Source: Chlamydoabsidia padenii (lineage: Eukaryota; Mucoromycota; Mucoromycetes; Mucorales; Cunninghamellaceae). Taken from it: a stretch of DNA of 64,000 nucleotides. Every line of letters starts with the position of its first letter. The stretch's first letter is position 1. The DNA is taken from NCBI GenBank assembly GCA_025330725.1, contig JAIWND010000002.1:1792501-1856500 (forward strand), written 5' to 3'. Made by a program: the position numbers and the translations under genes. Below, piece by piece: positions 54,758 to 57,078 of the stretch. The notes beneath the pieces are model-generated. The model was not told the DNA's origin. It saw nothing but the letters and a program-made list of their open reading frames with translations, and did no database searches.

Positions 54758-57078
54758 ATGGAATCTCGTTCTGACATATCCTCCTCCTTCACTTCCACCA
54801 CACAACAACAAAGTCATATCTTTGTGGGCGATTCAGCAATACCCAAGATGTTTGAAGAGAAGGTCCAACAGGATGATAGCGCATTGGATACAACTGATCA
54901 GCATGATCGTGATGTCAGTTCTACAAAATCAGCTACCACAACACAAAGAGATCTGCAACAGCGACAAGAAGCGCATGAACCACCTACACCAACTTACAAA
55001 GGCGGGTTTTATGCTATCATGACAGGTTCGTGGTTGAATGTGCTATTGATCTTTATTCCTTTTGGTATCATCTCTCATTTCTTTTGGGGTCCTACTGCTA
55101 CCTTTGTATTAAACTTTATCGCCATTATTCCTTTGGCTAAACTCTTGGGCGATGTGACTGAAGACATTGCATTGAGAACAGGAGAGGTAAGTTCTTTCTA
55201 TTCATGCATAATATGCTCGACTCCTATTTTCATTCCCCGATAACCGGAATATTCAATTCCCGGTTTTTGCCTCCTCTACAAACCTATTCCTTTTTGAAAC
55301 TCATCATTTGATTCTTTTTTTTTTTTCTTCTTCTTCCTATTATGCTCTAAAAAAAAAAGGTGGTTGGTGGATTACTAAATGCTACGTTTGGTAATGCTGT
55401 CGAACTTATTGTGTCAATCATTGCACTTAGTCAAAACTTGGTGGTGATTGTACAAAGTTCCATGTTGGGCTCTATTCTCTCTAATCTACTCTTGGTGCTG
55501 GGCATGTGCTTTTGGTTAGGTGGTTATCGATACAAAGAACAAGTGTTTAACGTTACAGTTGCTCAAACGTCGTCTGGTCTTCTGTTTATTGCCACTTCTT
55601 CTCTGTTGATGCCTGCTGCATTCTATGGATCTACTTTACAATCGGTATCGTCTGCTGCTGAAGTACACGACATTTTGGCTATCTCTCGGGCTACTTCTAT
55701 CTTGTTGTTGATTATCTATGCTTCCTATCTCTTCTTCCAGGTAAAAAAAAAAAAGTCTCATAATGTGCACTGAATTTTTATACTAAACTTGCATCTTTTA
55801 CATTTATGTATATGCACTCTGGTGGTTGATTCACTTTATGGATCTGGTTGGTACTCTAGCTTAGAACGCACAAACAATTAGTAAGTAAATACATTTAATT
55901 TATTCTATTCATCATTTGTATTGTATGCTCACATATGGTTGTTGTTATTTTTCTTCTCAACTCTAGTTTTTGGCGCCACCTCCTGAAGCGTTCCACTTCT
56001 CTCGACGTAATTCTCGAGGCCGGGTGAATGACGCTGAACGAAGCAGCACACTTACTGGAGCTGAAGGTGAAAATGATGATGACGAAGAAGAATATCCAGT
56101 GATGCCCGGGATGTTGGCTGGTCTCATGTAAGTACTAACTGAAAAGGAAATCAATGTCAAAACTAACATTCATGCTTTTTAGGTTATTCTTTATCACTGT
56201 GTTTGTAGCCATCTGCGCTGAATTCCTTGTCTCTGCTATCGAAGCTGTGGTTGAACAATGGAACATTAGTGAAACTTTTGTTGGTCTCATCCTGCTACCG
56301 ATCATTGGGGTAAGTACAATCATGGCGGGTGATGTGACAGGTTACTAACGCGACTCTTCTTCTTCATTTGATATCATTTTATAGAGTAAGTCATCAACCA
56401 CAAATATCTTGCACCTTTGTAACAATCTATACTAACTCTTCCTTTTCTTATCTATCTTGTGAACTCTATTGCTCCCTCGAACAGAGTAAGTGATTATCAA
56501 TGGCGATCATCTTTGGATTCTTTACTAACTTTAATGCTTTTCTATTTTTTATGTATAGTGCCGCTGAACATGTTACTGCAGTCTCTGTAGCATACAAGAA
56601 CAAGGTAAAAACGAGGGATGAATAAAGAGGATATGTGGTTACTAATCTAGAATCTCCGTTTATATTTTGAACCATATAGATGGATTTGGCTTTGGGCGTT
56701 GCGGTTGGAAGTAGTATGCAGATCGCACTTCTTGTTACTCCTATCATGGTGATCATTGGCTGGGGTATCGGTGTTAACATGAGTTTGTACTTTAACATGT
56801 ACGAAACCGCCACCATGTTCATCGCTGTAGTAATGGTCAACTATCTTATTATGGTAAGTTAACCGACTAAAAAAAAAAAACACCCAATCGACTAGCTAAC
56901 TCTTCTCTTTATTCCTCTGTAGGACGGACGAAGCAATTGGTTGGAAGGACTTATGCTGTGCAGTGTCTATTTGATTGTGGCCATTTCCTTCTTCTACTAC
57001 CCTGATGCTGCTGCTAATGATTTGGATACCGGTGTTAACTTGGGCACGAATCTATCTGTCACTCCTGTAGCTCATTAG
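54758..57078 (+). CDS. VCX1: Vacuolar Ca2+/H+ exchanger (CAX/Vcx1 family), spliced through two 1-nt exons
   Basis: Exchanges cytosolic Ca2+ for vacuolar protons. Exons 54758-55186, 55360-55740, 55860-55880, 55967-56127, 56183-56309, 56385, 56485, 56559-56604, 56680-56853, 56923-57078; 498 residues. The N-terminal 90 residues are polar; about 11 hydrophobic segments follow. Repeat c-1: [20 protein letters not shown]; repeat c-2: [20 protein letters not shown]. An acidic loop ([10 protein letters not shown]) separates the halves as in all CAX proteins. The c-2 Asn codon AAT is built from A (56385), A (56485) and T (56559). The 21-nt exon supplies LRTHKQL, matching the conserved FQLKTH segment. 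The family is secure; the one-base exons are inferred from frame, motif and splice signals. Confidence 0.95.
55860..55880 (+). other. 21-nt microexon in the exchanger gene
   Basis: CTTAGAACGCACAAACAATT plus A codes LRTHKQL, flanked by CTCTAG and GTAAGT. It restores LFFQLRTHKQLFLAPP, a conserved CAX segment. Confidence 0.92.
56385..56385 (+). other. Single-nucleotide exon (A), first of two
   Basis: Sequence context TTTTATAG-A-GTAAGTC. The preceding intron (56310-56384, 75 nt) has GTAAGT and branch site TTACTAAC at 56342-56349; the following intron (56386-56484, 99 nt) has GTAAGT and TACTAAC near 56430. The base is needed as position 1 of the Asn codon in GNAAEH. Confidence 0.82.
56485..56485 (+). 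other. Single-nucleotide exon (A), second of two
   Basis: Sequence context CGAACAG-A-GTAAGTG. The following intron (56486-56558, 73 nt) has GTAAGT, branch site TACTAAC near 56523 and a TATAG acceptor. It supplies position 2 of the same Asn codon. Retaining the intron between the two bases would bring an in-frame TAA. Confidence 0.82.

What the first reader, a model, noticed from the sequence alone, without database searches (positions are those of the whole stretch)
56310..56558. Two consecutive one-nucleotide exons in a Ca2+/H+ exchanger gene
Seen: after LILLPIIG (ending GGG at 56309) the next coding sequence is T-GCC-GCT-GAA (56559 on). The CAX family always has G-N-A-A-E-H here, so exactly two bases, AA, are missing. 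Between them lie two sites AG-A-GTAAGT, at 56385 and 56485. Each of the three introns (75, 99, 73 nt) has its own GTAAGT donor, its own ACTAAC branch site and an AG acceptor. Using both single A's restores AAT (Asn), a residue essential to the c-2 repeat. Skipping either or both shifts the frame; retaining the middle intron brings a TAA. Single-nucleotide exons are very rare (one is known in a plant APC11 gene); two in a row, in one codon, I know of nowhere else. Exon-definition cannot work on one base, so splicing must be intron-defined and perhaps stepwise.
Basis: partly seen in the sequence, partly recalled or inferred. Interest (0 to 1): 0.95.

Follow-up and report, generated by a model that had tools for sequence, protein, structure and literature searches.

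The report
Consecutive one-nucleotide exons in fungal genes
In this mould, one codon of a calcium-transporter gene is spread over three introns so that two of its letters are each a whole exon, and the same arrangement turns up in two other gene families of the same genome, which would push the known limits of how RNA splicing can work.

Summary
In a CAX-type Ca2+/H+ exchanger gene (54758-57078, +) of Chlamydoabsidia padenii (Mucorales), GGG is followed by three introns (75, 99, 73 nt) with two single A's between them; of 31 GT-AG parses only their joint use restores the family motif GNAAEH. A paralogue has the same layout, but its introns are 97-100% identical, so it is hardly independent. 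Stronger support lies elsewhere in the genome. Two alpha-tubulin paralogues assemble Ala-Cys from exons of 1, 1 and 2 nt, with introns alike only at random level and one synonymous change in a 1-nt exon; a third paralogue encodes the same residues without introns. Three Rho1-like paralogues assemble the P-loop lysine from two consecutive 1-nt exons (AAG, AAG, AAA). In each of the seven genes exactly one non-nested parse gives the motif; a nested path with a weak donor also does so in the exchanger genes only. Relatives' protein models look mis-spliced at the exchanger and tubulin sites. Single 1-nt exons are known (APC11, VPS55, CYP621A); runs of them did not show up in nine literature searches. 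Likely mechanism: intron-defined, sequential splicing. No RNA data could be examined.

The parts
54758..57078 (+). CAX-type Ca2+/H+ exchanger gene, ATG to stop, ten coding exons, 498 aa
   Evidence: joined reading frame; Pfam PF01699, 155 bits; best PDB match 4k1c, vacuolar calcium ion transporter, E 6.1e-113
56183..56309 (+). exon ending ...LLPIIG (GGG)
56310..56384 (+). intron 1 of the cluster, 75 nt, GTAAGT...TTATAG
56343..56349 (+). branch-site-like motif TACTAAC of intron 1
   Evidence: that this is the branch consensus is recalled
56385..56385 (+). first 1-nt exon, A (codon position 1 of Asn AAT)
56386..56484 (+). intron 2 of the cluster, 99 nt, GTAAGT...GAACAG
56430..56436 (+). branch-site-like motif TACTAAC of intron 2
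56485..56485 (+). second 1-nt exon, A (codon position 2 of Asn AAT)
56486..56558 (+). intron 3 of the cluster, 73 nt, GTAAGT...GTATAG
56523..56529 (+). branch-site-like motif TACTAAC of intron 3
56559..56604 (+). exon starting T-GCC-GCT-GAA-CAT (third base of Asn, then AAEH)
55860..55880 (+). 21-nt exon CTTAGAACGCACAAACAATTA (LRTHKQL) of the same gene, absent from the NCBI model P0001

Best explanation
The gene contains two genuine, consecutive single-nucleotide coding exons. Three complete, short introns interrupt one Asn codon (GGG|A|A|T), at phases 0, 1 and 2. Each intron is recognised on its own (intron definition). Because an acceptor and the next donor are one base apart, neighbouring spliceosomes are unlikely to assemble there at the same time, so the introns are removed one after another; each reaction leaves the next strong donor (N|GTAAGT) at the end of the growing exon, so the 1-nt exon acts as a ratchet that also leaves one coding base behind. 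Shown: sequence, frame, parse, and the same kind of layout in other gene families and paralogues. Inferred: actual splicing, its order, and repeated intron gain beside existing junctions as the origin.
For: Only 1 of 31 non-nested GT-AG parses gives GNAAEH; strong-donor shuffles 0 of 3000. Recurrence in the same genome: alpha-tubulin on C51 has AGAG|C|T|TG|TTGTTTG -> RACCLLSN and on C15 AGAG|C|G|TG|TTGTCTG -> RACCLLSN, introns alike only at random level (z 0.9, 0.7, -0.4, -0.4), with a synonymous T/G difference in a 1-nt exon; paralogue C14 encodes RACCLLS with no intron there. Three Rho1-like paralogues read GGAA|A|G|ACT (C56), GGAA|A|A|ACT (C71), GGAA|A|G|ACT (C27), all giving GKT. One restoring parse each, of 363, 297, 1103, 64 and 104. 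Enumerating all sequential GT-AG excisions, nested or not, to depth 3 (tubulin 4), gives one motif product in each of these five genes. Relatives: CAX models without the motif are 5 of the 10 closest proteins and 0 of the other 110 listed (Fisher 1.3e-6, grouping chosen after seeing the list); four of the five oddities are what AG-A-GTAAGT or AG-A-GTATGT sites yield in models that avoid 1-nt exons. The NCBI models of this gene and its paralogue (P0001, P0004) read GNAAEH.
Against: No RNA evidence. P0001 and P0004 drop the 21-nt exon, so they may not be transcript-derived, and the NCBI model of the C51 tubulin (P0183) reads into intron sequence (VQRGKSVSFYVCLLSN). The CAX paralogue is nearly identical at the cluster. 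A nested path also gives GNAAEH in both exchanger genes. The Rho1-like copy on C71 has weak signals (acceptor AAAAAG, no CTAAC), and the C15 tubulin has regular branch motifs in only some introns. With any GT donor, shuffles restore the motif often in the Rho1 stretches (720, 276, 237 of 3000). Both tubulin genes allow in-frame products one residue shorter, such as RACLLSN. GSAAEH of A. repens P0003 is not explained.
Confidence: 0.93

Rival explanations
1. A single 5-nt exon, AGTAA, is used (56385-56389 or 56485-56489) with donor GTCATC or GTGATT, giving GSNAAEH.
For: In frame and open; the NCBI model of Halteromyces radiatus P0008 reads GSNAAEH.
Against: Puts Ser between the Gly (or Ala) and Asn that are adjacent in 115 of 120 listed homologues; needs GTCATC or GTGATT although GTAAGT lies four bases upstream; does not explain the two full intron units, nor the tubulin and Rho1-like clusters.
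Confidence: 0.04
2. A nested complex intron (stwintron-like): intron 1 ends at TATAGAG, a new donor GG|GTAAGT forms across the junction, the next acceptor is ACAGAG, and a last intron starts at GTGATT; the product is GGT-AAT-GCC, the same protein.
For: Found in the exchanger gene and its paralogue when all sequential GT-AG excisions were enumerated (the step order was worked out by hand from the product); stwintrons are well known in other fungi.
Against: Needs the second AG of AGAG twice and the weak donor GTGATT instead of GTAAGT. In the five tubulin and Rho1-like genes no nested path to depth 3 (tubulin 4) gives the motif; the one product is the nano-exon product.
Confidence: 0.02
3. Pseudogene or sequencing error: the gene is not productively spliced, or one site is an assembly artefact.
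For: No expression data were seen (no call could give any).
Against: The 498-aa frame is intact; both sites recur in the paralogue about 400 kb away on the same contig; nano-exon runs in five further genes differ only synonymously between paralogues.
Confidence: 0.01

Closest known systems
Single-nucleotide exons of plant APC11 (Guo and Liu 2015, PMC4674806) and VPS55 (Yu et al. 2022, PMC8831610)
   Same: One coding base between canonical AG and GT, needed for the frame, missed by annotation; GTRAGT donor in VPS55; [quoted passage not shown]
   Different: One 1-nt exon per gene there, shown by cDNA or reads. Here two (CAX, Rho1-like) or 1+1+2 nt (tubulin) in a row, several introns within one or two codons, in a Mucorales fungus, without cDNA yet.
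One-nucleotide exon of Fusarium CYP621A (Nelson and Syed 2026, PMC12940212)
   Same: Fungal, in a conserved motif, found by frame and family alignment with an intronless relative as guide, supported by SRA reads.
   Different: A single G exon in one P450 family of an ascomycete; the abstract and discussion, which I read, mention no consecutive ones.
Adjacent microexons of 5 and 12 nt in peptidase M1 of plants and Zygnema (PMC11096116; also PMC8831610)
   Same: Two very short consecutive exons in one gene (passages).
   Different: 5 and 12 nt, not 1 nt.
Zero-nucleotide exons (ratchet points) of recursive splicing in Drosophila
   Same: Acceptor followed at once by a donor, stepwise removal, donor regenerated at the growing exon.
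   Different: Ratchet points leave no base and lie in long introns; here a coding base stays and the introns are 57-154 nt. Seen only in search listings (PMC8605326) and as references quoted; otherwise recalled.
Spliceosomal twin introns (stwintrons) of fungi
   Same: Consecutive splicing reactions under intron definition, donor formed by an earlier reaction (starts of abstracts and passages).
   Different: There an internal intron splits a splice signal; here complete introns are separated by a coding base.

Membership tests
single-nucleotide exon | exactly one base between a canonical 3' splice site and a canonical 5' splice site | tested here: met
   AG|A|GTAAGT at 56385 and 56485
single-nucleotide exon | the base is required for reading frame and family sequence | tested here: met
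   only this parse of 31 non-nested ones gives GNAAEH; the other 31 of 32 keep-or-drop combinations fail; one nested path is an exception
single-nucleotide exon | inclusion shown in mature RNA | not testable with these tools
   no reads or cDNA available; NCBI models P0001 and P0004 read GNAAEH but their basis is unknown
single-nucleotide exon | architecture kept over evolution | tested here: inconclusive
   met for the other clusters: tubulin C51 and C15 and Rho1-like C56, C71 and C27 keep exon sizes with mostly diverged introns and only synonymous changes; for the CAX site itself only a near-identical paralogue and odd models in relatives
[quoted passage not shown]
   tubulin and Rho1-like genes: no nested path to depth 3-4 gives the motif, not met; exchanger: one nested path gives the same protein but needs two AGAG acceptors and donor GTGATT
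zero-nucleotide recursive splice site | AG directly abutting GT | tested here: not met
   one or two bases lie between in each of the 16 cases; it may work like one, but is not one
introner-derived introns | introns share recognisable sequence | tested here: inconclusive
   within-cluster comparisons z -1.7 to 3.3 against letter shuffles, no clear copies; no genome-wide intron comparison was made

The most novel reading that the evidence does not exclude
In this fungal lineage codons of essential proteins are assembled one base at a time: runs of 1- and 2-nt exons, each followed by a strong donor, work as coding ratchets in at least three unrelated gene families (Ca2+/H+ exchanger, alpha-tubulin, Rho1) and have outlived gene duplication. 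Such runs would arise because new introns are gained right beside existing splice junctions, stacking three or four introns within one or two codons.
Probability: 0.6. Interest if true: 0.92.

Novelty: new variant of a known kind. Interest (0 to 1): 0.87.

Why it matters
It would show that the spliceosome can build a codon from single bases in three or four successive reactions without losing the frame, in genes such as alpha-tubulin and Rho1. That makes the order of intron removal, the minimal exon, and the spacing between an acceptor and the next donor testable in one short construct, and it offers a genome in which to study how introns are gained next to existing junctions. It also warns that gene models in this group can be wrong at such sites, as the NCBI tubulin model of this species and several exchanger models of relatives appear to be.

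Tried and rejected
Genome-wide census. The pattern branch motif - AG - N - donor was searched in six forms for 1-nt exons, one for 2 nt and one for 3 nt. The backward control gave more hits than the pattern in 7 of these 8 searches (for example 15 against 4, 66 against 24); only one search had more real hits (19 against 11). So the raw counts show no enrichment, and hits had to be read in context. Cluster sites: 3 of 4, 1 of 2, 4 of 19, 3 of 24, 0 of 15, 3 of 11, 2 of 20. Real 3-nt exons: 2 of 3. Other hits read in context by eye without recognising a nano-exon: 1 of 1, 1 of 1 (after one search had looked at the wrong place), 14 of 15, 21 of 21, some in non-coding sequence where the eye decides little, 3 of 15, 3 of 8, 7 rows (6 places) of 18, 0 of 1. 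No isolated 1-nt exon was recognised, but sites with other branch motifs or donors would be missed, as the C15 tubulin and C71 Rho1-like sites were. The plain word AGAGTAAGT occurs 819 times against 496 for its backward control, which ordinary exon ends may explain.

RNA structure: the stretch 56290-56580 folds worse than its shuffles (200 of 200 fold at least as well, z +2.68), so no structure is invoked. A regulatory role of the nano-exons was considered and has no evidence here. A tandem-duplication origin was considered: introns within a cluster are not clearly alike.

Full report
What is there. The window lies at C12:1792501-1856500 of a 34.2-Mb genome in 95 contigs. It is very probably Chlamydoabsidia padenii (Mucorales, Cunninghamellaceae): contig lengths 2144956, 598234, 120022, 1318596 and 439900 equal those behind NCBI proteins of that species. 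The gene at 54758-57078 joins ten exons to a 498-aa protein, Pfam Na_Ca_ex; the best solved match is the vacuolar calcium ion transporter 4k1c, which also reads PIVGNAAEH.

The site. After GGG (56309) come an intron of 75 nt, an A, an intron of 99 nt, an A, an intron of 73 nt, then T-GCC-GCT-GAA-CAT. All three introns have GTAAGT and TACTAAC. Of 31 parses with GT-AG introns of at least 40 nt and up to three internal exons of at most 80 nt, one gives GNAAEH: the two single A's. Of the 32 combinations of keeping or dropping the five pieces, one stays open to the gene's own stop. In 3000 dinucleotide shuffles a restoring parse appeared 58 times with any GT donor and 0 times with donors GTA[AT]G[TG] (built after seeing the site). 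When introns may also be nested and removed in sequence, one further path yields the same protein by another mRNA, GGT-AAT.

Same thing elsewhere in the genome. The paralogue at C12:1449207-1451704 has both sites, with introns 97-100% identical. A pattern search led to an alpha-tubulin gene on C51: AAAGAG | C | T | TG | TTGTTTG..., introns of 107, 68, 108 and 57 nt, each with TACTAAC, giving RACCLLSN. Its paralogue on C15 has AAAGAG | C | G | TG | TTGTCTG..., introns of 107, 76, 97 and 59 nt. The introns of the two genes are no more alike than shuffles (z 0.9, 0.7, -0.4, -0.4), and the one change among the nano-exons is T to G, GCT to GCG, both Ala. Branch motifs on C15 are less regular: TACTAAC in the third intron, TGCTGAC in the second, weak in the first, none recognised in the last. 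The C14 paralogue encodes RACCLLS in one uninterrupted stretch, and the C29 paralogue has a single intron where the cluster's first intron lies. A further hit is a Rho1-like gene on C56, GGAA | A | G | ACTTG, so the P-loop lysine AAG is built from three exons; its paralogues on C27 (A, G) and C71 (A, A, giving AAA) do the same; the C56 protein matches Rho1 in the PDB along its whole length. GDGACGKT stands in 118 of 120 listed Rho homologues, GDGSCGKT in the other 2. Intron similarity among the Rho1-like copies runs from none to moderate (z -1.5 to 5.5); the C71 copy has weak signals. In each of the seven genes exactly one non-nested parse restores the motif. Shuffles with strong donors gave 0, 2, 1, 3, 14, 3 and 1 of 3000, with any GT donor 58, 62, 113, 100, 720, 276 and 237 (order: exchanger, its paralogue, tubulin C51 and C15, Rho1-like C56, C71, C27). 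With nested excision allowed to depth 3 (tubulin 4) and any GT donor, the five tubulin and Rho1-like genes still have a single motif product, the nano-exon one; the two exchanger genes have two.

Relatives. No DNA of relatives was available. Their protein models help indirectly. Of the 120 CAX homologues listed, 115 have the contiguous motif; the 5 without are from Absidia glauca, A. repens, A. cylindrospora, Hesseltinella and Halteromyces, all among the ten closest proteins. Four of the oddities, GSNAAEH, GSIAAEH, a model ending in GSK and EQSNAAEH, are what 5-nt or retained readings of AG-A-GTAAGT or AG-A-GTATGT would give; GSAAEH of A. repens is not explained. Gongronella, Cunninghamella and a second A. 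repens protein read GNAAEH. Tubulin models of C. padenii (C51), A. cylindrospora, Halteromyces and A. glauca are irregular at the cluster too; 5 of the 120 listed tubulins, from other groups, also fail the motif. The NCBI models of this gene and its paralogue read GNAAEH but lack the 21-nt exon LRTHKQL, so I do not count them as transcript evidence.

Mechanism. The cluster introns are short (57-154 nt) and the donors strong: of the 16 donors that follow a nano-exon, 14 are GTAAGT and 2 GTATGG (counted). Exon definition is hard to imagine over one base, and two spliceosomes are unlikely to share it, so removal should be sequential; after each step the next donor sits at the end of the grown exon. 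[quoted passage not shown] Which intron goes first is unknown. The exchanger paralogues L022 and L023 have one intron one base earlier (GG|N), and L024-L027 one intron at AA|T, the position of the last intron here; tubulin C29 has only the first position. This fits stepwise gain of introns beside existing junctions, or loss of some; it is inference.

Known or new. Single 1-nt exons: APC11 (PMC4674806, first third of the text and passages), VPS55 (PMC8831610, passages), CYP621A (PMC12940212, abstract and discussion); a mitochondrial case in placozoan cox1 was seen in search listings only. Adjacent microexons of 5 and 12 nt (PMC11096116, passages). Stwintrons (PMC5639578 and PMC6616335, passages). 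Nine full-text searches of open PMC papers showed, as far as listings and passages tell, no consecutive 1-nt exons; subscription papers were not covered.

Verdict. The missing piece is RNA.

Noticed in passing
L097 (C58:12500-13350): DIM1 gene (U5 snRNP 15-kD protein): ATG ends its exon, then a 3-nt exon TCG, then a 25-nt exon, giving MSYFLPHLTNGWQVDQ; the 71 residues joined align end to end with residues 1-71 of U5-15kD (hDim1) in the PDB. A core splicing factor itself seems to need a 3-nt exon.
   Followed up: partly
L098 (C12:747250-748100): A gene that reads like an MFS transporter (name recalled, not tested) with a 3-nt exon CTG followed by a 12-nt exon GTCCTGCATTGG, giving MIAGPALGG.
   Followed up: partly
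window 55860-55880: 21-nt exon (LRTHKQL) of the exchanger, absent from NCBI models P0001, P0002, P0004, P0006 and P0007, present in P0003, P0005, P0008 and P0010 and as LKTHKQL in P0009: skipped by annotation or truly alternative.
   Followed up: no
window 54914-54961: P0001 lacks 16 residues ([16 protein letters not shown]), as if an in-frame 48-nt intron GTCAGT...CAACAG inside the first exon were removed.
   Followed up: no
L059 (C14:291500-294000): Alpha-tubulin paralogue without introns in its 3' part, encoding contiguously what C51 and C15 assemble from nano-exons; could be intron loss by way of a spliced copy.
   Followed up: partly
L066 (C6:443486-443529), L050 (C89:548859-548914): Further very short exons by eye: 8 nt (CTATTAGT) and probably 14 nt (CAACCTACCACAGA).
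   Followed up: no
window 54758-57078 and L021: The two exchanger paralogues have nearly identical introns at the cluster but more diverged N-termini (77% in the first match), which could mean gene conversion of the 3' part.
   Followed up: no
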